Translations under genes and position numbers: made by a program
Source: Rheinheimera sp. MMS21-TC3
Lineage (GTDB): Bacteria; Pseudomonadota; Gammaproteobacteria; Enterobacterales; Alteromonadaceae
DNA: 64,000 nucleotides
Assembly (NCBI RefSeq): GCF_032229285.1
Contig: NZ_CP135084.1
Location: forward strand, 1,674,001 to 1,738,000
Direction: 5' to 3'
Shown here: positions 50,000-63,868 of the stretch, piece by piece
Layout: each line of letters opens with the position of its first letter
Position numbering within the stretch: position 1 is the first letter of the stretch
Notes under the pieces: model-generated
What the model saw: the letters and a program-made list of their open reading frames with translations, nothing else
What the model was told of the DNA's origin: nothing
The model's database searches: none

Positions 50000-52666
50000 A
50001 TGTCAAACACTACGTTAAAAAGTTTGGTAGAAAAATTAAATCAAACTAGCCGCGCGTCATTAGAAGCAGCTACTGCACGCTGTCAATCACGAAGTCACTA
50101 CAGTGTAGAAATAGAGCATTGGCTAGAAGCTATCTTAGAACAATCAGATAACGATATAAGCTTAATTTTACGTAGTTTTGATATAAATGTTGATGTCGTT
50201 AAACAGCAGTTACAGCAAGTACTAGAGCATCTAAAAACTGGCAATAACGGCTTACCGAGTATTTCGGTACAGCTAATTAACTTATTACGTGCTTGCTGGT
50301 TAAATACAACTATAGATTTTGCAGATCAACATGTTCGCTCGGCTTATTTGCTATATACACTGTTAAAAGACGAGAGTTTATCTGCTTTAATATTACGCCG
50401 TGTGCCTGCGTTAGAAAAAGTTGATCCAGCTGAGTTATTAAGAGTTTGGCCTGAATTACAGCGTCACTCTAGTGAACAACAGCAATTAGCCAACAGTGGT
50501 TCAGGTCAAATAGTCCAAGCTGGTAAAACGCCAGCTTTAGATCAGTTTACGACTGATTTAACCGCTCAAGCTTATGCAGGAAAAATAGATCCTATCGTTG
50601 GCCGTGATGATGAAATTCGTCAGATGATCGACATTTTAACTCGTCGTAGACAAAATAATCCTATATTAACTGGTGAAGCGGGTGTAGGAAAAACAGCTGT
50701 TGTAGAAGGTTTAGCCTTGAAAATTGCTGCAGGAGAAGTGCCAGATAAACTTAAAACAGTCAGCTTACGGGTATTAGATTTAGCCTTATTACAGGCTGGC
50801 GCTGGCATGAAAGGGGAGTTTGAAAATCGACTGAAAAACGTTATCAAAGAAGTTAATTCCTCTGCTGTGCCAATTATTTTATTTATTGATGAAGCTCATA
50901 CCATGATAGGAAGTGGTGGTGCTGCAGGGCAAAATGATGCTGCAAACTTATTAAAACCAGCCTTAGCACGTGGTGAGTTACGCACTATTGCAGCAACGAC
51001 ATGGGCAGAATATAAGAAATATTTTGAAAAGGATGCTGCTTTAACTCGTCGTTTCCAAGTGGTTAAAATTGAAGAGCCATCAGTTGAGCTAGCCGTTGTA
51101 ATGATGCGTGGTTTATTAACTGTAATGGAGCAACATCATAACGTTAATATTACTGAGCAAGCCCTGCAAGCGGCCGTAACCTTATCCGACCGTTATATTA
51201 ATGGTCGTCAACTTCCTGATAAAGCGGTAGGGTTGCTTGATACAGCTTGCGCCCGTGTAGCTATGAGTCAAGATACCGTTCCCGGAGTTGTAGAGGCTTT
51301 ACAGCGTAAAGTTAAACAATTAACCCAGCAAATAGAATTACTTGCTCGTGAAGCGCGTTTAGGTGTGGTTCATGATAGTAAATTAGTTGAGTTAGAACAG
51401 CTAAAACTTGAGGCTGAGATAAAACTAAAGCAAGTAACAGAGCAATGGCAATATGAAAAAGAGCAGGTTGCTAAAGCTAGGCTGTTAGCGCAACAATTAA
51501 CTGCACCTAAATCAGATACAGCGCTAAGCAGCAAAGTTATCGCCAGCTCAGATGCTACTGGAAACGCCGCTGAAACAGATGATAAAGCGGAATTACTACA
51601 GCAGTTAATGGCAATAAAAGATCAACTTAAGCAGATTGCCGAGCCTATGGTGCACTGGCAAGTTAGCGATGAATTGGTTGCTGAAGTAATTTCTGACTGG
51701 ACAGGGATCCCGTTAGGAAAAATGCAAGCTGATGAAATTAATACTATTTTAGCATTGAAAACGTATTTGGCTGAGCGTGTAATTGGTCAAGATCACGCTT
51801 TAGAACTTATAGCTCGTACGGTGCAAACTTCACGGGCCCAGCTAGCTGATGAAAATAAACCCAACGGTATCTTCCTACTTACTGGACCAAGTGGTGTAGG
51901 TAAAACTGAAACCGCTTTAGCTTTGGCAGAGCAAGTTTATGGCAGCGAAGCACAGCTAACAGTTATTAATATGTCGGAGTTTAAAGAAGAGCATAAGGTT
52001 TCTTTATTACTTGGTTCACCACCGGGTTATGTTGGTTATGGTGAAGGTGGCGTATTAACTGAAGCTGTTAGACGTAAGCCTTACAGTGTTATTCTTTTAG
52101 ATGAAATGGAAAAAGCCCATCCTGGTGTGCAAGATATCTTTTATCAAGTATTTGATAAAGGCACTATAAAAGATGGTGAAGGTCGTGATATCGACTTTAA
52201 AAATACCATTATTATTATGACATCGAATGTGGGTACTGATACCACTATGCGTTTATTTGAAGATCCTGATACTGCACCTTCTATTGATGGTTTAGCTAAA
52301 GCATTAAAAGAAGATTTATTACAGGTATTTAAGCCCGCATTCTTAGGGCGCTTAAATTTAATACCTTATATTCCATTAGATGATGCCAAGTTAGCCCGCA
52401 TTACGCAGCTGCAGTTAACTCGTATTGAAAAGCGTTTACAACAACATTATCAAGCTAGTTTTAAATATAGTGAAGATGTAATCAGCTTTATTGTTAATCA
52501 ATGCCAAGATGCGGGGACTGGAGCAAGAACAATTCATAATATTTTACAAAACCAGTTACTCCCTGAATTGTCTATTGGCTTGCTGCAAAATATTGCTCAA
52601 GCTATTGATATAAATCATATTAATATTGAAGTTAATGATGATTCATTTCAATATAGTATTCAATAA
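50000..52666 (+). CDS. clpV: T6SS ClpV ATPase (TssH)
   Basis: 888 aa AAA+ disaggregase that recycles contracted sheaths. N-domain about residues 10-150, first AAA module with Walker A GEAGVGKTAV near 225 and IDEAHTMIGSGGAAGQNDAANLL, a coiled-coil middle region near 430-510, second AAA module with GPSGVGKTET near 630 and LLDEMEKAHPGVQD, and arginine-finger segments (LTRRF). Follows tssG by 19 nt. Confidence 0.97.
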   Translation: MSNTTLKSLVEKLNQTSRASLEAATARCQSRSHYSVEIEHWLEAILEQSDNDISLILRSFDINVDVVKQQLQQVLEHLKTGNNGLPSISVQLINLLRACWLNTTIDFADQHVRSAYLLYTLLKDESLSALILRRVPALEKVDPAELLRVWPELQRHSSEQQQLANSGSGQIVQAGKTPALDQFTTDLTAQAYAGKIDPIVGRDDEIRQMIDILTRRRQNNPILTGEAGVGKTAVVEGLALKIAAGEVPDKLKTVSLRVLDLALLQAGAGMKGEFENRLKNVIKEVNSSAVPIILFIDEAHTMIGSGGAAGQNDAANLLKPALARGELRTIAATTWAEYKKYFEKDAALTRRFQVVKIEEPSVELAVVMMRGLLTVMEQHHNVNITEQALQAAVTLSDRYINGRQLPDKAVGLLDTACARVAMSQDTVPGVVEALQRKVKQLTQQIELLAREARLGVVHDSKLVELEQLKLEAEIKLKQVTEQWQYEKEQVAKARLLAQQLTAPKSDTALSSKVIASSDATGNAAETDDKAELLQQLMAIKDQLKQIAEPMVHWQVSDELVAEVISDWTGIPLGKMQADEINTILALKTYLAERVIGQDHALELIARTVQTSRAQLADENKPNGIFLLTGPSGVGKTETALALAEQVYGSEAQLTVINMSEFKEEHKVSLLLGSPPGYVGYGEGGVLTEAVRRKPYSVILLDEMEKAHPGVQDIFYQVFDKGTIKDGEGRDIDFKNTIIIMTSNVGTDTTMRLFEDPDTAPSIDGLAKALKEDLLQVFKPAFLGRLNLIPYIPLDDAKLARITQLQLTRIEKRLQQHYQASFKYSEDVISFIVNQCQDAGTGARTIHNILQNQLLPELSIGLLQNIAQAIDINHINIEVNDDSFQYSIQ

Positions 52667-52748: not shown

Positions 52749-52916
52749 TTGTTGGCTTTTATCGCTTAGTATTAATAGTTATTATTTTTATGTTTTTTTA
52801 TTGTGCTTTGTGCGTAATGAAATTGTAGGCTTTAAATGCGCAAAGGGTAACACTTTGCCCAGATCCAATTTGTGTCCAACAATGGGCACTGTTTAAATAT
52901 GCAAAAGGAGCATAGC

Positions 52917-53396
52917 ATGCAAGCAAATACCTACTTAGAATATGGTTCTATTAAGGGTGAAACAACTGCGGAAGAATTCAAAGACATGATCACTGTATTG
53001 TCTATGGATTGGGGTACACATCGTGAACTTACTTCATTTACTGGTACCGCAATGGACCGTGAAGCAAGTGCTACTCGCTTAAATGATATCGTTATCACTA
53101 AGTTACAAGATAAAGCATCACCAGATTTATTCAAAGAAGCGACTATTGGTAAAGGTCAACCAGCTGTTTTTCATATCACCAAGCAAGGCGATAAAGTTGA
53201 AGAGATCATGAAAATTGAATTAACTGATGCAATGATCAGCAGCTATCAGATGTCAGTTTCAGGCGATCGTCCAATTGAAACAATCGTTATTAGCTACACA
53301 GAATTAATGATGACTGTTACACCTACAGACGACAAAAACAACGTTACTGCACCATTGGTATATGGTTACAGCGGCGTTAAAGGTTCTAAACTGTAA
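52917..53396 (+). CDS. hcp: T6SS tube protein Hcp
   Basis: 159 aa, the normal Hcp length. N-terminal MQANTYLEYGSIKGETT, middle RLNDIVITKLQDKASPDLFKEA and GDRPIETIVISYTELMMT are Hcp-type. Forms the inner tube as hexameric rings. ATG 52917 has AAGGAG upstream; the in-frame ATG at 52872 has none. Own candidate promoter upstream and a hairpin after it allow excess production. Confidence 0.95.
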   Translation: MQANTYLEYGSIKGETTAEEFKDMITVLSMDWGTHRELTSFTGTAMDREASATRLNDIVITKLQDKASPDLFKEATIGKGQPAVFHITKQGDKVEEIMKIELTDAMISSYQMSVSGDRPIETIVISYTELMMTVTPTDDKNNVTAPLVYGYSGVKGSKL

Positions 53397-53409: not shown

Positions 53410-53440
53410 ACACTGGTGTGGTTCACACACCAGTGTTTAT
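53410..53440 (+). terminator. Hairpin between hcp and vgrG
   Basis: Perfect 11-bp stem ACACTGGTGTG/CACACCAGTGT with a 5-nt loop (53410-53436), followed by TTTAT and then another T-rich stretch. It starts 14 nt after the hcp stop. It overlaps the false N-terminal extension of vgrG. Likely a partial terminator that keeps vgrG below hcp. Confidence 0.7.
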
Positions 53441-53483
53441 TCACTTTTTTACCTATCAACTTAGTCTACTATTGAGGCAATGG

Positions 53484-55301
53484 ATGCAACAGGCTAGTCA
53501 AGACGAAAATAGCATCAAAATTGACACCCCTTTGGGTAAAGATGCTGTCATTCTTACGCGTTTTGTATATAAAGAAGCGCTATCTGATTTATTTAGTCTA
53601 AAAGCCGAGGTATTTAGTAATGGCCGGACGGTAAAACCTAATGAGTTAATAGGTAAGGAAGTGACAATCACCTTAGAGTTAGGTGGTAAAAAACAACGAT
53701 ATCTTCACGGTATGGTTGCTGATGTTCGTTTATTCGGCCATCGCGTGAAACCCGAAGCGGCCGGCGCTGAATATCGAGATATCAGTTTAACTATTGTGCC
53801 TAGTGCATGGTATATGCAGCATAAGATTAATAGCCGGATCTTTAGATCGTTAAGTGTTTTAAAGATTGTTGAAAAAATTGCTGGAGAGCATGGTGTTAAA
53901 ATTGATGCGGCCTCTAAAGTAAAAGCTGGGAATTATCCTAAGTATGACTTTAAAGTGCAGTATGAAGAAAGCGATATGGAGTTTGTACAACGCTTACTAG
54001 AACAAGAAGGTATTTTTTACTATTTTGAACACACTAGTGGTGGTCATAAGCTTATTTTAGCTGACAGCGCCTCAGCATACGAGCCAGGCACTGAAGCTAA
54101 AGTAGAGGTTTATAGCGGGAGTTTATCGCAGCCGCATATTCATTATTGGCAAGATGCTGTTGTTATGGCGCCAGGCAAATATACCCAGCGTGGATACGAT
54201 TTAAAAAAACCAACTGCTTTACCTACTGGGGAGGTGGCGAGTGGTGACTTAGTTAATGGCCATGCCGATTATGAAGTTTTTTGTTATGAAGCTGAATCAG
54301 AAGTCCATACCCGTGGTAAAAAAATAGCCGGTATCCGCTTAGATGCATTACAACGTGATTCACAACGTCGCCAAGGTGCTAGTAATTGTCGTTCTTTTAG
54401 TATTGGCAAAACTTTTACCATTACTAAGCATGAAGATAAAGCAGAACAAGGTAAACAATATGTATTAACCGAAGTTATTTTAACTGCGGCTATTGCTAGT
54501 CAAACGGGGGCCAGCAAGTCTGCTAAGCAAACTATTACCAACCAATTTTATTGTGTGCCCAAAGAGGTTTGTTACCGGCCTCAATTACGCTGCGTTAAAC
54601 CTATTATTCATGGTGTACAAACTGCTACTGTCACTTGTAAAGGTAATGAAGAAATCTCAATTGATGAACTAGGTCGTATTACGGTTAAGTTTCATTGGGA
54701 TCGCAGTGATATTACAGATAATCAGAGCTCTTGTCCTATCAGAGTTAGCCAAAATTGGGCGGGTAAAAAGTGGGGGGCTTTCTTTTATCCCCGACGTGAT
54801 CAAGAAGTCTTAGTAGAATTCTTAAATGGTGATCCTGATCAGCCAATCGTTATTGGTGCTGTTTATAACTCTGATCATATGCCGCCGTATGGTTTACCTG
54901 ATGAAAAAACTCAATCGGGTATAAAAACTCGCTCTACAGAAAAAGGCGGGGATGCAAACTTTAATGAAATTCGCTTTGAAGATAAAAAGGGCGAAGAACT
55001 ACTGTATTTACACGCCGAAAAAGATTTTGAACTGCAAGTTGAAAATGATCAGCAAAGGGTTATTGGCAATGATCGTAAAACAGCGATCACAGGCAATGAT
55101 ACCGTTAATGTTAAAAAAGATCGTAAAACCACTATCGATGGTGGTGATACCTTAAAAGTGGGCAAAAAGTTGGTAATTAATGCCGGTGACGCTATTACCA
55201 TTAAAACTGGCGCTGCATCTATTTCAATGAAAAGTGACGGTTCTATTGATATTAAAGGCACCAACATTACGATTAAAGGCTCTAAAGTTAGTATTAATTA
55301 A
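53484..55301 (+). CDS. vgrG: T6SS spike protein VgrG
   Basis: 605 aa from the preferred start. gp27-like domains (IDTPLGKDAVILTRF, EESDMEFVQRLLEQEGIFYYFEH near residue 170), gp5-like OB domain (GRITVKFHWDRSDITDNQSSCPIRVSQNWAGKKWGA in pieces; FYPRRDQEVLVEFLNGDPDQPIVIGAVYN) and a C-terminal beta-helix of alternating Gly/Asp/Lys repeats ending IKGSKVSIN. No C-terminal effector extension. ATG 53484 has TGAGG upstream; the GTG at 53418 lies inside a hairpin and adds an unlikely hydrophobic leader. Confidence 0.95.
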   Translation: MQQASQDENSIKIDTPLGKDAVILTRFVYKEALSDLFSLKAEVFSNGRTVKPNELIGKEVTITLELGGKKQRYLHGMVADVRLFGHRVKPEAAGAEYRDISLTIVPSAWYMQHKINSRIFRSLSVLKIVEKIAGEHGVKIDAASKVKAGNYPKYDFKVQYEESDMEFVQRLLEQEGIFYYFEHTSGGHKLILADSASAYEPGTEAKVEVYSGSLSQPHIHYWQDAVVMAPGKYTQRGYDLKKPTALPTGEVASGDLVNGHADYEVFCYEAESEVHTRGKKIAGIRLDALQRDSQRRQGASNCRSFSIGKTFTITKHEDKAEQGKQYVLTEVILTAAIASQTGASKSAKQTITNQFYCVPKEVCYRPQLRCVKPIIHGVQTATVTCKGNEEISIDELGRITVKFHWDRSDITDNQSSCPIRVSQNWAGKKWGAFFYPRRDQEVLVEFLNGDPDQPIVIGAVYNSDHMPPYGLPDEKTQSGIKTRSTEKGGDANFNEIRFEDKKGEELLYLHAEKDFELQVENDQQRVIGNDRKTAITGNDTVNVKKDRKTTIDGGDTLKVGKKLVINAGDAITIKTGAASISMKSDGSIDIKGTNITIKGSKVSIN

Positions 55302-55330: not shown

Positions 55331-55624
55331 ATGGGTAAACCTGCTGCTGTGATCGGTATGATGCATTTATGCCCTAAAGTGCAACCTGGGCCAGTACCTC
55401 ATGTTGGTGGTCCCATAATTGCTGGCTCACCTAATGTGAGTATATGCGGGATCCCAGCTGCAAGAAAAGGAGATAAATTAGTCTGTGTTGGCCCGCCAGA
55501 TACTATTAATAGCGGTTCTTCAACGGTATTTATTAATGGTAAAAATGCGGCTCGATTAGGAGACTCAACGGCCCATGGTGGCAAAATTATTTTGGGTATT
55601 CCAAATGTTTTAATTGGTGGTTAA
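55331..55624 (+). CDS. PAAR-domain spike tip protein
   Basis: 97 aa, one PAAR domain only (GKPAAVIGMMHLCPKV, HVGGPIIAGSPNVSICGIPAARKGDKL, INGKNAARLGDSTAHGG, GIPNVLIGG). Conserved His/Cys (MHLC, CVGPP, AHGG) are expected to hold zinc. Sharpens VgrG and carries cargo. AAGGA precedes the ATG. Being separate from the Rhs protein, it needs adaptors, which fits the two genes that follow. Confidence 0.93.
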   Translation: MGKPAAVIGMMHLCPKVQPGPVPHVGGPIIAGSPNVSICGIPAARKGDKLVCVGPPDTINSGSSTVFINGKNAARLGDSTAHGGKIILGIPNVLIGG

Positions 55625-55630
55625 CGCACT

Positions 55631-56728
55631 ATGTTAGTAGATGAAAGCCTAATTGATAATACCCGTTTACTACTAGCGCAACGTTTACAGTTAGTTGACA
55701 GCCGCTATGTTGGGCTGCAGCAAATTAGGCAGCATGATTTAAAGTTAATCACTAATATTAAATTGTTACTCAAGCGTGAAAACAGCTCAGAGTTACCGGC
55801 ATGGTTTAATTGGTTAGATCAAGACAATGTCACCCCCTTAGACCTTGCAGATCTAGATGAGTTTATCAACAATGATCGTGCTTGGTTGCTATTAACCGAA
55901 ATAAAAGTGTTACTGCAACCAACTTGGCTTGATGAATTTATTAAAGCCTTTCAACATAATCCAGAAGCTGAATACAGTCGTTTATTTTGGCAGCTAGCCG
56001 CTAGGTTGCAGCTAAAGTTAAACCCGTTTTGCTTTTCACAGCCATTAACCGGTCAAGCATTATGGTATATCGTTTGTTCAGCACAACCGCAGTTACAGCC
56101 TGAGCTGCAGCAGCTTTTAATTCGTTTATTACCAACTGATCCGCTAATGGTCTATACCAAAATGGCGCTACATAGTTACAACAATGGATTTAATGAAACC
56201 GCAAGTAATAACAAGCAATCAGAACGGTTTTGCGAGCTAGCCTTAATTAGTCAGTTAATTAAGACTGAACAACTTAAGCCAGAACATTTAATGTTATTAC
56301 TGATCTCTGCACCAGAGAGTAAACAAACGGAAATAATTAATTACCTGATTAATAATATTGCGACTCAATCTTTAGCAATTTTAGCTTTAGCTATCAGTGG
56401 TAAAGCTAAGTTTATTGCTTTATTACTTGAGTTAGCGCAACAAGCCGATACTAGTGAAGAAGCAACCGACAGTTTAGGTTGTATCCTTGGTGTTATTGAG
56501 GCTGACTCGTTATTATGTGACGTAAATTTACTAGCTAATTTACACCTGAATGCAAATAGCAAATACCTTGCGGGGCATACCTTAAATTCAACAGTTCTAG
56601 CTTTAGTATGGCAGCAGGGGAACCAGTTACAGCGTCGTATTGCAGCTTGTTATGCGCGTTTAGCTGATAATAATACTTACTGGCGTGAGCCAGATACCTT
56701 GTTGGGTGGTGCATGGCATTGCCAATAA
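55631..56728 (+). CDS. Unrecognised helical T6SS-cargo-associated protein
   Basis: 365 aa, Leu/Gln-rich, almost wholly helical. The N-terminus (ESLIDNTRLLLAQRLQLVDSRYVGL, then IRQHDLKLITNIKLLL) recalls TIGR02270-type T6SS-associated proteins, but only by pattern. Later segments such as LLALAISGKAKFIALLLEL and IAACYARLADNNTYWREPDTLLGG look like HEAT/TPR-type repeats. No signal peptide. Six nt after PAAR and overlapping the next gene by 16 nt, so co-translated with it. Possible cargo adaptor. Confidence 0.5.
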   Translation: MLVDESLIDNTRLLLAQRLQLVDSRYVGLQQIRQHDLKLITNIKLLLKRENSSELPAWFNWLDQDNVTPLDLADLDEFINNDRAWLLLTEIKVLLQPTWLDEFIKAFQHNPEAEYSRLFWQLAARLQLKLNPFCFSQPLTGQALWYIVCSAQPQLQPELQQLLIRLLPTDPLMVYTKMALHSYNNGFNETASNNKQSERFCELALISQLIKTEQLKPEHLMLLLISAPESKQTEIINYLINNIATQSLAILALAISGKAKFIALLLELAQQADTSEEATDSLGCILGVIEADSLLCDVNLLANLHLNANSKYLAGHTLNSTVLALVWQQGNQLQRRIAACYARLADNNTYWREPDTLLGGAWHCQ

Positions 56729-57687
56729 CGATTTGTGACTATGTAGTTGTAACCGGTAAAACCACCAATACCGACCATGCAATGACATTAGCAATAAATG
56801 AAATTCCAGCTAAGGACTATCGTTGGCAAAGTTATTCTTTACCAAGCAATTTTATTGACGATGAACAGCCTGCATCACAATTAGCGGATCGCATTATTAC
56901 GCTTCTTAATACCTTATGGCCCAGCATAGAACATCGCATTGCCGACAACGAAGTTTATTTATTGTTGCCAGAGTTTTCCGGAGTAGATAACCCTGAGCTA
57001 CAGCAATTATTGCAAGCCATTATGCGCCAGTTTCCGGCATTATTGCGCAATCAACATTGCAAAGTATTTCCCTTTGGCCGAGCGTCGGCATTAATGGCGT
57101 TTGCTGCTGCTAGAGCACGCTTAACTAGCCAAAATAGCAGCAAAGTTTGGTTAGTGGCTGTAGATAGCTTAGCTGTTATCAGCCGCTTACAAGCTTGGCT
57201 AGCAAGGCAATATTTCCAGCCAGAAGCGGTAGCCTCAGAGGCCGCTATTGCACTTTGCTTAACCGCTGCTAATACAGGCTTAATTAATAGCTTGCATGCA
57301 GCAGACGCTAATGTTGCAGCAGTGGGGGCTAATGCAAACTCAGCACAACAAGATGCCGCGTTAGCCCATTTGTTTTTGCATGTGGCTAAATCAATGAAAC
57401 AACAATTAGCCTATATTATGCTGCCCGATACCGGCGAGCCACAGTTAACTAGTTTTTGGTCAGAGCAATATCAACAGTTACATGGTGTTGTAAACAAACA
57501 AACTCAGTTTGAGTTTCCAGGTTACTTTACCGGTGAACTTGGTGCAGCAGGTGGCTTATATCGGTTGTTACATATGTATTTAGGTTTTGAACAACAACGC
57601 TTAACGGCGCCATTATTACACTGTGAAATCGCTGAGCGCTCCTATAGAGCTGTATCTGTTTTTAATTATCAATCTGTAGTTCAGTAA
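56713..57687 (+). CDS. Thiolase-fold-like protein of the PAAR-Rhs cassette
   Basis: 324 aa. The C-terminal TGELGAAGGLYRLLHMYLGF near residues 275-295 and ASEAAIALCL near 175 resemble beta-ketoacyl-synthase/thiolase folds (GHTLGAAG and the surrounding active-site segments), but the usual Cys and His catalytic signatures are not evident. Thiolase-like proteins are known next to PAAR and DUF2169 genes in T6SS cargo loci. Probably a non-catalytic adaptor or chaperone for the Rhs protein; this is inference. Confidence 0.5.
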   Translation: MALPITICDYVVVTGKTTNTDHAMTLAINEIPAKDYRWQSYSLPSNFIDDEQPASQLADRIITLLNTLWPSIEHRIADNEVYLLLPEFSGVDNPELQQLLQAIMRQFPALLRNQHCKVFPFGRASALMAFAAARARLTSQNSSKVWLVAVDSLAVISRLQAWLARQYFQPEAVASEAAIALCLTAANTGLINSLHAADANVAAVGANANSAQQDAALAHLFLHVAKSMKQQLAYIMLPDTGEPQLTSFWSEQYQQLHGVVNKQTQFEFPGYFTGELGAAGGLYRLLHMYLGFEQQRLTAPLLHCEIAERSYRAVSVFNYQSVVQ

Positions 57688-57705
57688 CAAGGACGTTAAA
57701 ATAAC

Positions 57706-60700
57706 ATGTCGGTGCAATCTGTTCAGTTACAAAATCAAAATGGCACAGTGTTTCAGCTTAGCACGCAGGCTGAGCCTAATGCTGGCGAGGCAAAAAGCTT
57801 CCCATCTGCAGCAGATGCAGCAGGTTTTTTACAGCAGCAGTTTCAATTTAATTTACAAACACCATTAAATGCTATTTTAGACTATTTGGGTGTACCCACG
57901 TTGCATAGTGGTGGTTCTATTGAAGCTACTAAGCAAGCCTATAAAGCTATTGCGAGTGCGGTTATGGCGCGCAAAGTGTTTATTTATGAAATTGCGCCTA
58001 AGCCAGTGGCTTTACCTGAATCGCAAACTATGGGCCCTGCGCCTACCACTAAAGCCAAAGCGGCCAATCAAGGAGGCCGTACAGATAACAGTGAAACGAC
58101 AAACGAAGACGCTACAGCAGTATCAGACCAAGCCGGTAGCAATGCTGCTGGTACGGCTATTACTGAAAATGCAAAGGTAGAAACCTGTGGCGATCCGGTT
58201 GCTATGGCAACTGGGGAAGAGATTTTAGAGTTAACCGACTTTAGCTTACCTGGTCCTGTGCCTTTAAACTTTATTCGAACGTATCGTTCAAGCCAAAGCC
58301 ATGAAAATATTGGCATGGGCTTTGGTTGGCGCAGTAACTTCCATGTCAAAATTGTCGCTATTCAATCAAAAGACGAGCCTGAACAAAATGGCTTATATTT
58401 GCATAATGAAGAAGGCCGACGGTTACACTTTGCTATTCCTAAGCTTGGTCAAACGAGTTATCAGCTTTCTGAAGACTTAGCCCTACGCTACGAAAAAAAT
58501 GGCAGTTTAGTGCTATTAAAGCCAGACAATAGCCAATGGGTGTTTGTGCCATCAGCAAAAGAACAACAACAATGGCAACTGCATCAGATCCTAGACAGCC
58601 TAGGTCATTTTTTACAGTGTTATTACGATAAACAAAATCGTCTAAGTCGCATAGATTATACCCGTAAACGTGGTATTGAACTGCATTATAATAGCCAAGG
58701 CTTATTGCAACGTATCGATGCTGTAGAGCAAGGTGAACACGGCTTAGTCCCCATACAACAGCAATTAGCGGCGTATGAATACGATACAGAGTTAGACTTA
58801 ACCCGCGCCATCAATATTGCAGGCCAAGTTGAACATTATCAGTACCAACAGCATTTAATTACCGAGCGTCAGCGTGCCAGTGGCTTTAAGCATTACTTTG
58901 CTTGGCAAGGCCAAGGCCCTGCGGCCAAGTGCATTCGTAACTGGGGGGATGACGGTTATTATGACTATCACTTCCAGTATGATGAGCAGCGTAATACTAC
59001 TACCAGCACCGACAGCCGCGGCCAGTGTTGGCAATATGTGCATAATGCACGTAATCAATTAGTTAAAAAAATGGGCCCAGATGGCGCAACTTGGCTATAT
59101 AGCTGGAATAGTGCCGGTAAAAAAGTCTCTGAAACCGAACCTAATGGCGCTGTAAACCGCTTTTACTATAACGAGCTAGGCCAGCTTAAAACGGTAGAGC
59201 AAGGTGATGGTGCTATTAGTCATTTTAGTTATAACGATCTTGGCCAACGTTGCGGTTTTATTGATGCCGAAGGCCATCATTGGCAACGTGAATATACCTC
59301 GGGGGGCTTATTAAAAGCAGAAATTAGACCCGACGGTAGCAGCACCCGTTATGAATATAATCTTGACGGTCAGCTAACCAAGAAGATAAATCCTGATGGC
59401 CAGTCAACTCTCTATCATCATAACGATGAAGGCCAATTGTTAGCGGTTAAACAACACCATGCTGTAGAGCGCTATAGTTACGATAAACTAGGGCGCTTAA
59501 ATGGCATATCAGACGCAGCTGGATTAATAACTGAGTTTAAGCGCAATAATGCGGGTCAAATTATCCAACAGCGCCAATACAGTAGTGCCCAACCCGAGCA
59601 AGTTAGCTGTATTGATTATCAATATGATATCGCTGGGCGCTTAATTAGCCAACAAAACCCGTTGCAACATAAAATACAATGGCGCTATGAAGGCTTAAGC
59701 CAACCGGTAACAATGTTACAAGCCGATGGCAGTGCCCTGAATTATGAATATGACAAAGAGCGCAACCTCACTGCCATTATGCGCAGTGACGGCGCCCGTT
59801 ACGCTATAGATTACGATGGCCAAGAGCGGCCTGTTGCCTTAACCGGCTTTGATGGTAGGGCGCAGCATTTTCAATACGACGCCAGCGGAAAAGTCAGCCA
59901 AGCAACTGATGCCGACCAACGGAAAATAAAGCTAAAACGTGATCAGCGTGGCCGCATAATCGAGCAAGTTGCCCAGCACCAACAGCAAATTCATAATAAC
60001 CATTTTCATTACAATAAATTAGGCCGCTTACTGCGCGCCAGTAATGGTCAGCGCAAGTTACGGTTTAATTATAATGGCAATGGCCAAATAACCGAGCAAT
60101 GGCAAGATGACTGGCGAAGTTGTTATCAGTATGACAGCAGTGGCCGTATTACCGCGCTAACATTAGCCGATGGCAATACGCTGAATTATGCTTACACCCC
60201 ACAAGGCCAGTTAGAAAGTCTTACATTAAACCAGCAACCGTTATTTACGTGCCAATACGATAACGCAGGCCGTGAAATATCACGCCAATACCAAAATGGC
60301 CTAGTGCTTAATCAGCAGTATGATGCTTTTAATCGCTTAACGCAGCAGCAGTGGCAGCCAGAGCCAACTAAAGACGCAAGCCAAAACACACGACAGCGTG
60401 AATATCAATACAGTGCTTTGCACCAAGTTATTGCCATAAAAGACAATCAAGAGGGTGAAATTAGCTATGGCTATAACGCCCTTGACCAACTAACCAGTAA
60501 ACAACACAACCAAGACAGCAGCCAAAACGAGCAACACCAATGGGACAGCTTCGGCAACCCGCAAGGTGATGATGTTGAAGTAAAACAAGACAGACTGCTT
60601 CGTTATCAGCAAAATCAGTATCAATATGATGCCAGTGGCAACCAAACCAGTTTTAGCACCAGTGGCAAACGCCAGCAACGCGAGTTTAATGGCTTTAATC

Positions 60701-61716
60701 AATTAACTAGTCTGTTTAATAGCGAAAATGGCCATGACTCAGTTACGCGTTACGAGTATGACGCCTTAGGCCGGCGCAGCGCTAAAATAACCGCCCAAGG
60801 CCGTACTGACTATTTATGGCAAGACAACACCTTATTAGGCGAACACCAAAATGGCGAGTTTACTTGGTACCTGTTCGAGCCAAATAGTAATAAACCTTTA
60901 GCGTTAATAAAACGCGGCAAGGTCTATTTTTATCAACTAGACCAACTGGGCACGCCATTAAGCCTAACCGACAGCGACAACAACATCGTCTGGCAAGCGC
61001 ATTACACTGTGTTTGGTAAAGCCACGCTGACGGTGAACAAAATCGACAACCCAATCCGCTTTCAGGGCCAGTACTATGACAGCGAAAGCGGGTTACACTA
61101 CAACCATTTCCGCTACTACGACCCACAAACCGGCCGTTTTATCAGCCAGGATCCGATAGGGCTGCTAGGTGGCATAAATCACTACCAATACGCGCCGAAC
61201 CATATCAACTGGATTGATCCGCTGGGGTTGTGTGCGAAGGAAAGCGGTGTAGATTTTTATGTTGGGCCGTCAGGCCCGCTTGCTACATTACCTTCTACAG
61301 CCTATCGCTATGACCGTTATTTAAATGATGACGGGACGTTGAACGAATGGGGAGATAAAATAATTCAATCAGGTGAAGGACGAGTAACATACTTTGGGTT
61401 TGAGAAATATGATTCTGGTACTAAAGCTGCAGATGCTTTTCAAATTAAGACTAAGCGACACGTGAATCCGCTAGATCCTGAGGATAGATCATGGAGTGAC
61501 AGCCGCTTACGAAGTGAGTTTGATACACTTCAGTTATTTGATAAAGGTGGGGTTCCGTCAGTACGGGTGCCAACAGCTTATGGTGATAAGCCTGGAGAGG
61601 CTCCTGAGCCGTTTACATCAGCTTATCCGGAATTTGGTGCGGGTGGTGCGCAACAACTTCATGCCGATGGTGCAATAATAAAATACAGGAACACAGAAGT
61701 GTTACCAGAGGATTAA
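57706..61716 (+). CDS. Rhs-family polymorphic toxin effector
   Basis: 1336 aa. N-terminal 150 residues carry no PAAR. A DUF6531-type start follows (ETCGDPVAMATGEEIL, LNFIRTYRSS near 165-200), then about 25 YD/Rhs repeats (YDxxGRL, YxYDxxGN) forming the toxin-enclosing shell, and the conserved cap PIRFQGQYYD near 1115, RFISQDPIGLLGG near 1145 and DPLGL ending at 1175. The 161-residue tip (from C1176) contains STAYRYDRYL, RVTYFGFEKYD and FGAGGAQQLHADG. An ADP-ribosyltransferase-type toxin is possible but not proven. The immunity candidate is 3 nt downstream. Confidence 0.9.
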   Translation: MSVQSVQLQNQNGTVFQLSTQAEPNAGEAKSFPSAADAAGFLQQQFQFNLQTPLNAILDYLGVPTLHSGGSIEATKQAYKAIASAVMARKVFIYEIAPKPVALPESQTMGPAPTTKAKAANQGGRTDNSETTNEDATAVSDQAGSNAAGTAITENAKVETCGDPVAMATGEEILELTDFSLPGPVPLNFIRTYRSSQSHENIGMGFGWRSNFHVKIVAIQSKDEPEQNGLYLHNEEGRRLHFAIPKLGQTSYQLSEDLALRYEKNGSLVLLKPDNSQWVFVPSAKEQQQWQLHQILDSLGHFLQCYYDKQNRLSRIDYTRKRGIELHYNSQGLLQRIDAVEQGEHGLVPIQQQLAAYEYDTELDLTRAINIAGQVEHYQYQQHLITERQRASGFKHYFAWQGQGPAAKCIRNWGDDGYYDYHFQYDEQRNTTTSTDSRGQCWQYVHNARNQLVKKMGPDGATWLYSWNSAGKKVSETEPNGAVNRFYYNELGQLKTVEQGDGAISHFSYNDLGQRCGFIDAEGHHWQREYTSGGLLKAEIRPDGSSTRYEYNLDGQLTKKINPDGQSTLYHHNDEGQLLAVKQHHAVERYSYDKLGRLNGISDAAGLITEFKRNNAGQIIQQRQYSSAQPEQVSCIDYQYDIAGRLISQQNPLQHKIQWRYEGLSQPVTMLQADGSALNYEYDKERNLTAIMRSDGARYAIDYDGQERPVALTGFDGRAQHFQYDASGKVSQATDADQRKIKLKRDQRGRIIEQVAQHQQQIHNNHFHYNKLGRLLRASNGQRKLRFNYNGNGQITEQWQDDWRSCYQYDSSGRITALTLADGNTLNYAYTPQGQLESLTLNQQPLFTCQYDNAGREISRQYQNGLVLNQQYDAFNRLTQQQWQPEPTKDASQNTRQREYQYSALHQVIAIKDNQEGEISYGYNALDQLTSKQHNQDSSQNEQHQWDSFGNPQGDDVEVKQDRLLRYQQNQYQYDASGNQTSFSTSGKRQQREFNGFNQLTSLFNSENGHDSVTRYEYDALGRRSAKITAQGRTDYLWQDNTLLGEHQNGEFTWYLFEPNSNKPLALIKRGKVYFYQLDQLGTPLSLTDSDNNIVWQAHYTVFGKATLTVNKIDNPIRFQGQYYDSESGLHYNHFRYYDPQTGRFISQDPIGLLGGINHYQYAPNHINWIDPLGLCAKESGVDFYVGPSGPLATLPSTAYRYDRYLNDDGTLNEWGDKIIQSGEGRVTYFGFEKYDSGTKAADAFQIKTKRHVNPLDPEDRSWSDSRLRSEFDTLQLFDKGGVPSVRVPTAYGDKPGEAPEPFTSAYPEFGAGGAQQLHADGAIIKYRNTEVLPED
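60538..61230 (+). repeat. Rhs core end, first copy of a direct repeat
   Basis: About 690 bp of the main rhs gene, from the FGNPQGD segment to DPLGL, repeated in the same direction at about 62412-63089 with clear nucleotide similarity (for example GTCTGGCAAGCGCATTACAC in both). It provides homology for toxin-tip exchange. Confidence 0.85.
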
Positions 61717-61719
61717 GTA

Positions 61720-61974
61720 ATGAGTATAAGGTCTGATTATCCCTGTAATGAAGCAATTAATGACTTAGAGGTTTTTTTTAGAAAGCATATTGCTAATGCT
61801 AAAGAGCTCCAGAGATTTCTTGATTATTTAGTTCAATTTAAGGCTGCTGGAAGAGTTAGCTTTCGCTTTTTACACGAAGAATTGATGGCATATAGAAAGA
61901 CTAATTCAGATTATTTTCCATTCAGTGATGAGGAGCGTAAGATGATAGATGAGATGTTTCACTTTTGGGGATAG
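61720..61974 (+). CDS. Candidate immunity protein for the first Rhs toxin
   Basis: 84 aa, acidic and helical, no signal peptide or membrane segment (DLEVFFRKHIANAKELQRFLDYL; SDEERKMIDEMFHFWG). Not recognised as a family. Placement 3 nt after the rhs stop is the usual immunity position. A cytoplasmic immunity protein implies the toxin acts in the cytoplasm. Confidence 0.6.
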   Translation: MSIRSDYPCNEAINDLEVFFRKHIANAKELQRFLDYLVQFKAAGRVSFRFLHEELMAYRKTNSDYFPFSDEERKMIDEMFHFWG

Positions 61975-62087: not shown

Positions 62088-62402
62088 CTATTGCAACACC
62101 GACCTAACTGCAATCGAAAACGCCGCCACCATACCGATAATCCATATTGCGGAGCGGGTGGTGGCGTAGTCCAGCCAGTAACACACCAGATACGCCAGCC
62201 GGCTGACGATAAATACCCAAGCTAAAATCACTGTGGTGCTATCCACTGTTTCAAGTGCTATGGCGCTGAATACGGCGCAGGCATAAATCAGCAAGGCTTC
62301 AAAACTATTGTAATGCGCCGCATTAGCGCGCTGGCCAAAGCCGGTCAGGCTGGCTTGCTGTGCGCGCGGGTTATGGTTGTCATAACCGCCGGCTTTTTGC
62401 AT
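62088..62402 (-). pseudogene. MAPEG-family protein, N-terminally truncated
   Basis: 104 codons matching the MAPEG membrane family: KAGGYDNHNPR, QRANAAHYNSFEALLIYACAVFSA, SRLAYLVCYWLDYATTRSAIWIIGM. The first membrane helix (about 25 residues) that normally precedes KxxGYDNxxPR is absent: upstream sequence becomes Rhs coding sequence on the other strand near 62403-62415. Three helices remain. It looks like a gene cut by arrival of the orphan rhs segment. G+C-rich codons set it apart from the T6SS genes. Confidence 0.75.
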
Positions 62403-62411
62403 AGCAAAAGC

Positions 62412-63089
62412 CAGTGGCGCTTTGGTAACCCCACAGGTGACGGCATAGAGGTAAAGCAGGGCCGTTTACTGCGTTTTCACGAAAACCAATATCAATACGA
62501 CGATAACGGTAATCAGCTAGCTGCCACCGCACCGGGCAAACGTCAGCAACGCGAGTTCAATGGCTTTAACCAGCTAACGGCATTGCAGCAGAATGATGCT
62601 GTTACGCGTTACGAATATGACGCCTTTGGCCGGCGCAGCGCCAAAATTACCGCCGCCGGGCGTACTGATTATCTGTGGGAAGGCAACACGCTGATTGGCG
62701 AATACTGTCAGGGTGAATACCGCTGGTATGTGTTTGAGCCAAACACTAATAAACCGCTGGCACTGATAAGCGGCGGCCAGTTGTATTTTTACCAGTTAGA
62801 CCAGTTAGGCACACCGCTCAGCTTAACTGATAGCGAAAACAATATTGTCTGGCAAGCGCATTACACTGTGTTCGGTAAAGCCACTGTAACGGTTAATGAA
62901 ATTGACAACCCCATCCGCTTTCAAGGCCAGTACTATGACAACGAAAGTGGCTTACACTACAACCATTTTAGGTACTACGACCCCGAAACCGGCCGCTTTA
63001 TCAGCCAGGACCCAATAGGGCTGCTCGGTGGCATCAACCACTACCAATATGCGCCAAACCATATCAACTGGATAGATCCATTGGGGCTG
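62412..63089 (+). repeat. Rhs core end, second copy of the direct repeat
   Basis: Partner of 60538-61230. The similarity begins at QW-FGNP and ends at DPLGL, exactly the boundary before the toxin tip. Codons are more G+C-rich than in the first copy, so it is a diverged homologue, not a recent duplication. Confidence 0.85.
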
Positions 63090-63551
63090 AGTTGCAAAGA
63101 GAATGCTGTAAATGTCTTCAGTACCCAAGACCAAGCTGCTAATGCTGCTTTGAAGCTAGCTAATCCGTTATCAATTACTGACAATCTTGAATACGGAGGG
63201 TTAATATACAGAGATGAAAACGGCAATTACGGTTTTTCCGGCCCCGTAAAAGGGTCTGATCAAGGCGTCAACCCGCATGATGCAGTTATACCCGATGGCG
63301 CAACACTGGTTGGTGACTACCATACGCATGGTGATTATTCATTGATAGACAGAGTTAGCGGAGCTGCAATCAGAACAGGTGATCCTTTACGTGATGAGTT
63401 TAACAGTGATAACTTTTCAGCGGGCGATTACTCGGGGATCCGTGCGGATGCTCGCGGTATATCAGGCTATCGGGGCTATTTAGGAACACCCGGAGGGTTA
63501 TTTAAGGTATTCAATCCGGAAGACGGAACTGTTTCGGTGTTAAAAGAATGA
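62412..63551 (+). pseudogene. Orphan Rhs tip with JAB/DUF4329-like toxin domain
   Basis: The open frame extends from 62313, but Rhs similarity begins near 62412; there is no N-terminus or start of its own, so it is a displaced rhs-CT cassette. Core cap: PIRFQGQYYDNESG, RFISQDPIGLLGG, DPLGL (residue 259 of the frame). The 153-residue tip has LEYGGLIYRDENG, GDYHTHGDYS and NFSAGDYSG: Glu, HxH and SxxD as in JAMM/MPN metalloprotease folds, matching DUF4329-type toxins. Silent unless recombined into the main rhs gene. Confidence 0.75.
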
Positions 63552-63868
63552 AAATTTTATCGTCTATTGTACTACTTATGCTTATGGAGAATTCCACATT
63601 GTCAGAGATTAAAGCGCCTGTAGAAGTATTATCAATTAAAGCGTCGCATTTTGATGTTATTAAGCTTGCTGGTGAGCGGGTTGACGATGAGAGGCTGGGT
63701 ATATCGGGTTACAACATCACGCTTATGGAAGATGATAATAACTGGATTGTTTATTACCAACCTGCTGATTACCCTGCAGGTCAAAGAGGAAGTATTGGTA
63801 AAAAGACTTATGTTGTTGAACTTAGAAAAACTGACCTGAAAATTGTCAACGCATATTATGGCAGGTGA
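63548..63868 (+). CDS. Candidate immunity protein for the orphan Rhs tip
   Basis: 106 aa; start overlaps the orphan rhs stop by ATGA. A short hydrophobic N-terminus (MKILSSIVLLMLMENSTLS) may be a signal peptide, after which YVVELRKTDLKIVNAYYGR at the C-terminus is like the NTF2-fold immunity proteins that accompany polymorphic toxins. If exported, the toxin would be countered in the periplasm. Assigned by position; fold match is tentative. Confidence 0.55.
   Translation: MKILSSIVLLMLMENSTLSEIKAPVEVLSIKASHFDVIKLAGERVDDERLGISGYNITLMEDDNNWIVYYQPADYPAGQRGSIGKKTYVVELRKTDLKIVNAYYGR

What the first reader, a model, noticed from the sequence alone, without database searches (positions are those of the whole stretch)
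55331..61974. PAAR - helical protein - thiolase-like protein - Rhs toxin - immunity cassette
Between a bare PAAR gene and an Rhs effector lacking its own PAAR lie two overlapping, unusual genes. One is all-helical; the other carries a thiolase-like TGELGAAGG segment without clear catalytic residues. Close packing and overlap suggest a dedicated loading set: adaptors that mount the Rhs shell on the PAAR/VgrG tip. Thiolase-like and TIGR02270-like genes are known beside T6SS cargo, but how this pair works is poorly described.
Basis: partly seen in the sequence, partly recalled or inferred. Interest (0 to 1): 0.8.

Follow-up and report, generated by a model that had tools for sequence, protein, structure and literature searches.

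The report
DUF2169-free spike-loading pair for Rhs toxin
Between the tip of a bacterial toxin-injecting spike and its large Rhs toxin sit two genes, for a dead enzyme-fold protein and a helical scaffold, that are probably helpers preparing the tip and perhaps loading the toxin; relatives of both have been described beside other spikes together with a chaperone that this version lacks.

Summary
In a complete 3.14 Mb Rheinheimera-like genome a T6SS cluster ends ClpV-Hcp-VgrG-PAAR-ARM-TLP-Rhs-immunity candidate. TLP (324 aa) has a full ketosynthase fold but not the catalytic Cys or TGH His, and is homologous to TvpD (PRK06147), the predicted PAAR co-chaperone of class II Tvp systems. ARM (365 aa) is a helical solenoid homologous to TIGR02270 proteins of such clusters. 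The parts are known; the assembly differs. Of 72 distinct TLP loci, 14 have DUF2169 (TvpA), all with a DUF4150/PIPY tip; of 58 without, 49 have a canonical PAAR upstream, none a PIPY. The window is of the second kind, outside the published Tvp classes, which DUF2169 defines. The Rhs lacks PAAR; its N-terminal domain (about 120 aa), followed by an autocleavage motif, was found in 13 of 394 genomes, all TLP-positive, and weakly resembles that of V. parahaemolyticus RhsP. Best reading: ARM and TLP chaperone the sole VgrG-PAAR spike and probably help seat the Rhs N-domain. No interaction was tested. Against an Rhs-only role, 10 of 42 PAAR-ARM-TLP loci lack an adjacent Rhs; ARM is missing in 7 of 49 PAAR-TLP loci.

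The parts
50000..52666 (+). ClpV (TssH), start of the conserved run ClpV-Hcp-VgrG-PAAR-ARM-TLP-Rhs
   Evidence: ORF; named from its sequence and place, not run against a family library; homologues in the same place in related loci
52872..53396 (+). Hcp tube protein
   Evidence: PF05638 E 8e-31
53418..55301 (+). VgrG, the only TIGR03361 match of the genome
   Evidence: TIGR03361 564 bits; single match in G000
55331..55624 (+). canonical PAAR tip, 97 aa, the only PAAR_motif match of the genome
   Evidence: PF05488 E 1.7e-28; single match in G000
55631..56728 (+). ARM: 365-aa HEAT/armadillo-type alpha-solenoid, remote TIGR02270 relative
   Evidence: NCBIfam TIGR02270 E 2e-4, below its cut-off; profile match to TIGR02270-type proteins of DUF2169 clusters, prob 97.7, E 2.5e-12 over 332 columns; AF2 pLDDT 90.1
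56713..57687 (+). TLP: 324-aa ketosynthase-fold protein without catalytic residues, TvpD/PRK06147 relative
57706..61716 (+). Rhs effector without PAAR, 1336 aa, RhsP-like
   Evidence: RHS_repeat, DUF6531 and RHS; best solved relative 8h8a/8h8b, 617 bits, residues 7-1174
57706..58194 (+). Rhs N-terminal domain (about residues 1-120) and linker up to the N-terminal autocleavage motif PVAMATGE at residue 164
   Evidence: profile A6: 13 of 394 genomes, all of them TLP-positive; motif position
61231..61713 (+). Rhs C-terminal variable (toxin) region after the DPLGL motif; toxin family not identified
   Evidence: DPxGL at residue 1171; no toxin family in Pfam or NCBIfam
61720..61974 (+). 84-aa candidate immunity protein
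   Evidence: position directly downstream of the Rhs; no credible family match

Best explanation
ARM and TLP are a T6SS spike-tip accessory pair: a DUF2169-free relative of the TvpD plus TIGR02270 part of class II Tvp clusters, working on a canonical PAAR. Proposed steps: (1) ARM and TLP are made together from overlapping genes and form a complex. (2) TLP, a ketosynthase fold turned non-catalytic, packs against PAAR, as TvpD is modelled to do against the Tse7 PAAR domain, while the ARM solenoid clamps or bridges. (3) The complex helps to place PAAR on the genome's only VgrG and to seat the Rhs N-terminal domain, which autocleavage would free from the cage, beside it. (4) ARM and TLP leave before firing. 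Shown here: homologies, predicted folds, loss of catalytic residues, conserved gene order, link to canonical PAAR rather than DUF2169/PIPY, restriction of the Rhs N-domain to TLP genomes in the survey. Inferred: every physical contact, autocleavage, the order of steps, and release before firing.
For: Order PAAR-(ARM)-TLP-Rhs after ClpV-Hcp-VgrG recurs in Rheinheimera, Arsukibacterium, Shewanella and other families. Of 49 PAAR-linked TLP loci, 49 have VgrG upstream, 42 ARM, 38 Rhs within 100 bp downstream. TLP is homologous to TvpD and ARM to TIGR02270 proteins over nearly the full length, and 9 of 14 DUF2169 loci show the order DUF2169-PIPY-ARM-TLP, in L131 followed by an Rhs. TvpD is predicted to shield the PAAR domain (PMC13373197); transposon hits in each gene of a P. 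mirabilis type A cluster abolish killing, which the authors call only suggestive because of possible polar effects (PMC11883445, passages). Catalytic residues are lost in both branches: D or E for the TGH His in 18 of 18 TvpD-type and 28 of 28 TLP rows. No DUF2169 in the window's genome, nor in 13 of 21 TLP genomes of the family. The Rhs N-domain was found in 13 of 394 genomes, all TLP-positive, 12 with it directly downstream of TLP.
Against: No complex was modelled or measured. ARM is absent in 7 of 49 PAAR-TLP loci and from the neighbouring genes of the 11 Vibrio-like loci fetched, so it is not universally needed. In 10 of 42 PAAR-ARM-TLP loci no Rhs lies next door, so the pair may serve PAAR alone. 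RhsP is reported to bind VgrG2 through its own region (PMC9980498). Eight of 21 TLP genomes of the family do have DUF2169, in 5 of them away from the TLP locus, so help in trans is not excluded there. The gene-distance test could not separate partners: Hcp correlates with ARM and TLP about as strongly as these do with each other. Canonical PAARs are said to bind VgrG on their own (PMC11883445 abstract), so why this one would need helpers is unexplained.
Confidence: 0.55

Rival explanations
1. ARM-TLP are only PAAR/spike assembly chaperones; the Rhs reaches the spike by itself, parts of it binding VgrG, and is merely encoded next door.
For: Of 58 DUF2169-free TLP loci, 49 have PAAR upstream but 40 an adjacent Rhs. 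In the Moritella-type loci L103-L107 no Rhs or other recognised effector follows TLP. [quoted passage not shown] TseI's N- and C-terminal parts bind VgrG1 (PMC7170923, passages).
Against: The Rhs N-domain was seen only in TLP genomes, and in 12 of 13 directly behind TLP.
Confidence: 0.3
2. TLP is an active acyl-transferring enzyme that modifies the spike or the Rhs.
Against: The position of the catalytic Cys is S, R or A in 27 of 28 rows, the TGH His is E in 28 of 28, and no His is conserved in at least 80% of rows. Cys116 is conserved in 27 of 28 but does not align with the catalytic Cys.
Confidence: 0.03
3. ARM and/or TLP are secreted cargo (co-effectors) or immunity-like proteins rather than loading factors.
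For: They lie in an effector operon.
Against: They are kept across loci with different or no adjacent effectors, homologues are part of Tvp accessory clusters, TvpAB and TvpB were not found secreted (PMC13373197, section 13), and no toxin family matched.
Confidence: 0.07
4. The genes are neutral passengers of the cluster.
For: TLP was found in only 30 of 394 genomes of the order; ARM is missing in some lineages.
Against: Kept between PAAR and effector over long divergence in many genera.
Confidence: 0.03

Closest known systems
Class II Tvp accessory system (PA0096-PA0098 with Tse7; PMC13373197) = DUF2169 synteny type A (PMC11883445)
   Same: TvpD homologue (TLP) and TIGR02270/armadillo-like homologue (ARM) beside VgrG, a PAAR-type tip and an effector; in 9 of 14 DUF2169 loci the same order tip-ARM-TLP
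   Different: No DUF2169 (TvpA), no separate DUF6484 gene (TvpC) next to VgrG, canonical PAAR instead of DUF4150/PIPY, PAAR-less Rhs effector
RhsP / T2Rhs-Nuc of V. parahaemolyticus T6SS2 (8h8a and 8h8b, taken to be RhsP from the citations in PMC11461821; PMC9980498)
   Same: PAAR-less Rhs with a homologous cage, weakly similar N-domain and the PVxxxxGE autocleavage motif; related Rhs of two-chromosome, inferred Vibrio, genomes lie behind VgrG-PAAR-TLP
   Different: RhsP is encoded outside its main T6SS cluster; the window's Rhs lies inside it with an ARM gene. One 2026 paper (PMC13377157, passage) says RhsP contains a PAAR motif, citing the retracted work
Ketosynthase / thiolase superfamily
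   Different: Catalytic Cys and TGH His lost, shorter (324 aa)
EagR (DUF1795) and Tap/Tec (DUF4123) T6SS adaptors
   Same: Comparable genetic position and proposed role
   Different: Neither protein matches any Pfam family at E 1

Membership tests
Class II Tvp accessory system | DUF2169 protein (TvpA), the defining part of all Tvp classes | tested here: not met
   PF09937: 0 matches in the complete own genome
Class II Tvp accessory system | DUF4150/PIPY-type PAAR | tested here: not met
   Tip is PF05488 at 99.1 bits; Tox-PAAR-like PF13665 only 19.7 bits, cut-off 31
Class II Tvp accessory system | separate DUF6484 protein (TvpC) next to VgrG | tested here: not met
   29 bp between VgrG and PAAR; DUF6484 seen only as a sub-threshold match inside VgrG. 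Not searched for elsewhere in the genome
Class II Tvp accessory system | TvpD (PRK06147) protein | tested here: met
   Profile-profile prob 98.1, E 8e-14 over 319 columns; the NF004798 cut-off itself is not reached, 29.5 of 342 bits, nor is it by the DUF2169-linked L119 protein, 168.9 bits
TIGR02270 family | curated NCBIfam cut-off | tested here: not met
   20.7 of 206.8 bits; remote homology at prob 97.7
Ketosynthase (KAS) enzymes | thiolase-superfamily fold | tested here: met
Ketosynthase (KAS) enzymes | catalytic Cys and His | tested here: not met
   Arg at the Cys position and Glu at the TGH His of the window protein
RhsP-like PAAR-less Rhs effectors | RhsP-like cage and autocleavage motifs without PAAR | tested here: met
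   8h8a 617 bits; PVxxxxGE at 164 and DPxGL at 1171; no PAAR
RhsP-like PAAR-less Rhs effectors | RhsP N-terminal domain | tested here: inconclusive
   A6 profile against 8h8a residues 34-135: E 0.019, best PDB match but weak; window residues 1-160 alone did not hit it at E 0.1
RhsP-like PAAR-less Rhs effectors | binding to VgrG | not testable with these tools
   no interaction assay or multi-chain prediction available
DUF1795 / DUF4123 adaptors | Pfam domain match | tested here: not met
   0 Pfam families at E 1 for either protein

The most novel reading that the evidence does not exclude
A fourth, DUF2169-independent class of spike-tip loading complex: ARM plus dead-ketosynthase TLP on a canonical PAAR, which reads a portable N-terminal recruitment domain present on PAAR-less Rhs effectors and, in a diverged form, on non-Rhs candidate effectors (one with VasX_N) and as stand-alone 117-118 aa genes between VgrG and PAAR.
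Probability: 0.3. Interest if true: 0.75.

Novelty: new variant of a known kind. Interest (0 to 1): 0.55.

Why it matters
Tvp systems are defined by DUF2169, which stabilises DUF4150/PIPY tips (PMC13373197, PMC11883445). Here the TvpD-ARM half exists with canonical PAAR tips and, in 13 of 21 TLP genomes of the family, with no DUF2169 anywhere. That separates what TvpD/ARM do from PIPY stabilisation, and a species with one VgrG, one PAAR and one such pair makes the test clean. It also bears on how PAAR-less Rhs effectors such as RhsP are seated on the spike; the 2018 paper on RhsP secretion was retracted (PMC6420618, whole note).

Tried and rejected
Mirror-tree distances between VgrG, PAAR, ARM, TLP and Rhs (37 loci, 28 for Rhs): all pairs correlate, also given ClpV, and Hcp, an unlikely partner, about as much as the others; not informative. 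Sequence search of ARM and TLP profiles against solved structures gave no credible relative. Foldseek for ARM gave no match at E 0.001 or better, and VIA only middling Z (best 9.2) to unrelated solenoids, read as a common arrangement. A Foldseek list for TLP was not obtained; the VIA second look was. NF004798 as a survey model mostly hit ordinary FabB/FabF; only the 16 full-length matches with E below 1e-40 were used, and the 15 not already held were fetched. The toxin type of the Rhs was not found. The link of the Rhs N-domain with the N-domains of non-Rhs candidates is only suggestive: pairwise hhalign prob 47%, E 2e-4; A6 hits at E 0.007 and 0.04; the reverse search with the other domain's profile did not list any Rhs at E below 1. 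A metabolic role of TLP was rejected for lack of catalytic residues.

Rows dropped: L044 and L045 were left out of the tip/DUF2169 table because they came in through the DUF2169 search (both have DUF2169 and PIPY); 130 loci were collapsed to 74 at 98% TLP identity. The Vibrio-like loci are not in that table. The TLP tree has long branches that meet, so only the DUF2169 side (19 rows with 5 orphan TvpD-like genes, support 100/100) is used.
Full report
What is there. The window is part of a complete 3,136,108-base genome, Rheinheimera-like: genomes of its genus hold the loci of named Rheinheimera records (L008 with G017), and named protein hits are Rheinheimera. Nine of ten ORFs tested in 24-50 kb are T6SS core genes: FHA protein, TssK, TssL, TssM, TssA, TssB, TssC, TssF, TssG; the tenth is PurT. 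The cluster ends ClpV (named from its sequence), Hcp, VgrG, PAAR, ARM (365 aa), TLP (324 aa), Rhs and an 84-aa ORF. The genome has one VgrG and one PAAR_motif match, one TLP and one ARM.

How widespread. A scan of one genome per species gave 18 loci: Rheinheimera, Arsukibacterium, Shewanella salipaludis and MAGs. L003-L019 (17 of 18) carry PAAR-ARM-TLP-Rhs in that order; L020 has a 51-residue TLP match and an Rhs. In the GTDB family TLP was found in 21 of 196 genomes, some of the TvpD type, in the order in 30 of 394, and in a two-chromosome, inferred Vibrio, genus in 14 of 148. Agarivorans and Moritella were named, where the names given read 'hypothetical protein'.

The tip rule. Neighbourhoods were fetched and annotated with profiles. 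Of 72 distinct TLP loci, 14 have DUF2169 in the stretch held; 14 of 14 have a PIPY tip, 0 a canonical PAAR. Of 58 without, 49 have a canonical PAAR upstream, 0 a PIPY; the other 9 have neither upstream, one of them (L111) a PAAR 4.4 kb downstream on the other strand. Limits: PAAR-type loci were found with a profile made from such loci and TvpD-type loci mostly with NF004798; the PIPY profile was built from DUF2169 loci; some stretches are short (L029, L030 under 3.4 kb); rows are related, so the Fisher p of 3e-14 overstates independence. On the TLP tree the 14 DUF2169 rows and 5 orphan TvpD-like genes form one side of a branch (100/100). In 9 DUF2169 loci the order is DUF2169-PIPY-ARM-TLP (L109, L119, L128, L129, L131, L132, L136-L138); the next gene is an Rhs in L131 and Tle1-like in L136, unidentified in the rest. 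The window has the same order with canonical PAAR and no DUF2169. L120, L126 and L133 have DUF2169-TLP-PIPY protein; L125 and L139 differ again. Genome-wide, 13 of 21 TLP genomes of the family have no DUF2169; of the 8 that have it, 3 (G038, G096, G135) have it at the TLP locus and 5 elsewhere.

How tight is the link to Rhs. Of the 49 PAAR-linked loci, 42 have ARM, 38 have Rhs within 100 bp downstream, 32 both, 10 ARM without Rhs, 6 Rhs without ARM, 1 (L101) neither. In 4 of the 10 (L112-L114, L116) the candidate effector lies between VgrG and PAAR instead. In one of the seven ARM-less loci, L118, a 342-aa gene of no known family sits in the ARM place. In 11 Vibrio-like loci newly fetched, among the genes listed, ARM and DUF2169 are in 0 of 11, PAAR in 9 (two also match the PIPY profile, more weakly), Rhs directly downstream in 9. 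So PAAR is the more constant partner, Rhs the usual one, ARM dispensable in some lineages.

The Rhs N-domain. The Rhs starts with about 120 residues of no known family and has PVxxxxGE at residue 164; this motif is in 35 of 41 TLP-adjacent Rhs at positions 150-184 (motif as quoted in PMC11461821, passage). A profile of 24 such N-domains (A6) hit 13 of 394 genomes: 12 directly downstream of TLP, the 13th (G315, draft, E 7e-5) in a genome with TLP on another contig; 0 of the 364 TLP-negative genomes had a hit. Nine of the 13 genomes gave rows to the profile, so the useful part is the absence elsewhere. In ARM-less Agarivorans-type loci the match is marginal (E 0.02-0.05). Its best PDB match is 8h8a residues 34-135, E 0.019, and the whole Rhs matches 8h8a best of all solved chains. 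Rhs of two Vibrio-like VgrG-PAAR-TLP loci match 8h8a at 1093 and 1049 bits.

A possible wider marker. Between VgrG and PAAR 7 loci carry stand-alone 117-118 aa genes (L089, L091-L094, L115, L118), and the same domain begins non-Rhs candidate effectors (L086 434 aa, L087 362 aa, L112 479 aa, L088 1360 aa). The L088 protein also has VasX_N (E 1e-17). The relation to the Rhs N-domain is suggestive only.

Known and new. TvpD as predicted PAAR co-chaperone, HEAT/armadillo-like proteins in the same clusters and a transposon phenotype in P. mirabilis are in print (PMC13373197: abstract, sections 9, 12, part 1 of 13 and passages; PMC11883445 and PMC7970981: passages). In the passages of PMC13373197 shown for 'HEAT' only heatmaps appear. 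The DUF2169-free canonical-PAAR arrangement was not met in searches (listings) of an open-access library; Liu 2020 (PRK06147 as adaptor; not held) and Tang 2022 (RhsP; not looked up) were not read, so absence from print is not established.

Verdict. Real, conserved, and a variant of a known kind.

Noticed in passing
window 62313-63551 and 63548-63868: An Rhs C-terminal fragment (412 aa) with a different end (DUF4329, E 4e-18), followed by a 106-aa candidate immunity gene: looks like a displaced toxin cassette behind the main Rhs.
   Followed up: no
window 62088-62402, - strand: A 104-aa hydrophobic ORF resembling MAPEG proteins (recalled, not searched) overlaps the start of the Rhs fragment on the other strand.
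   Followed up: no
L127, L130, L134, L135, L121: TvpD-like genes with no VgrG, PAAR, DUF2169 or ARM recognised within the fetched stretch: orphan dead-ketosynthase-like genes of unknown use.
   Followed up: partly
L088:8914-12993: 1360-aa candidate effector that begins with the stand-alone-type N-domain and continues with VasX_N.
   Followed up: partly
L089:7552-7902, L091:8128-8478, L118:7692-8045 and similar: Stand-alone 117-118 aa genes between VgrG and PAAR that match the N-domain of non-Rhs candidate effectors; perhaps free tethers.
   Followed up: partly
L131: DUF2169 (cut by the contig end)-PIPY-ARM-TLP followed by an Rhs with a different N-terminus: the DUF2169-containing set can also sit before an Rhs.
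   Followed up: no
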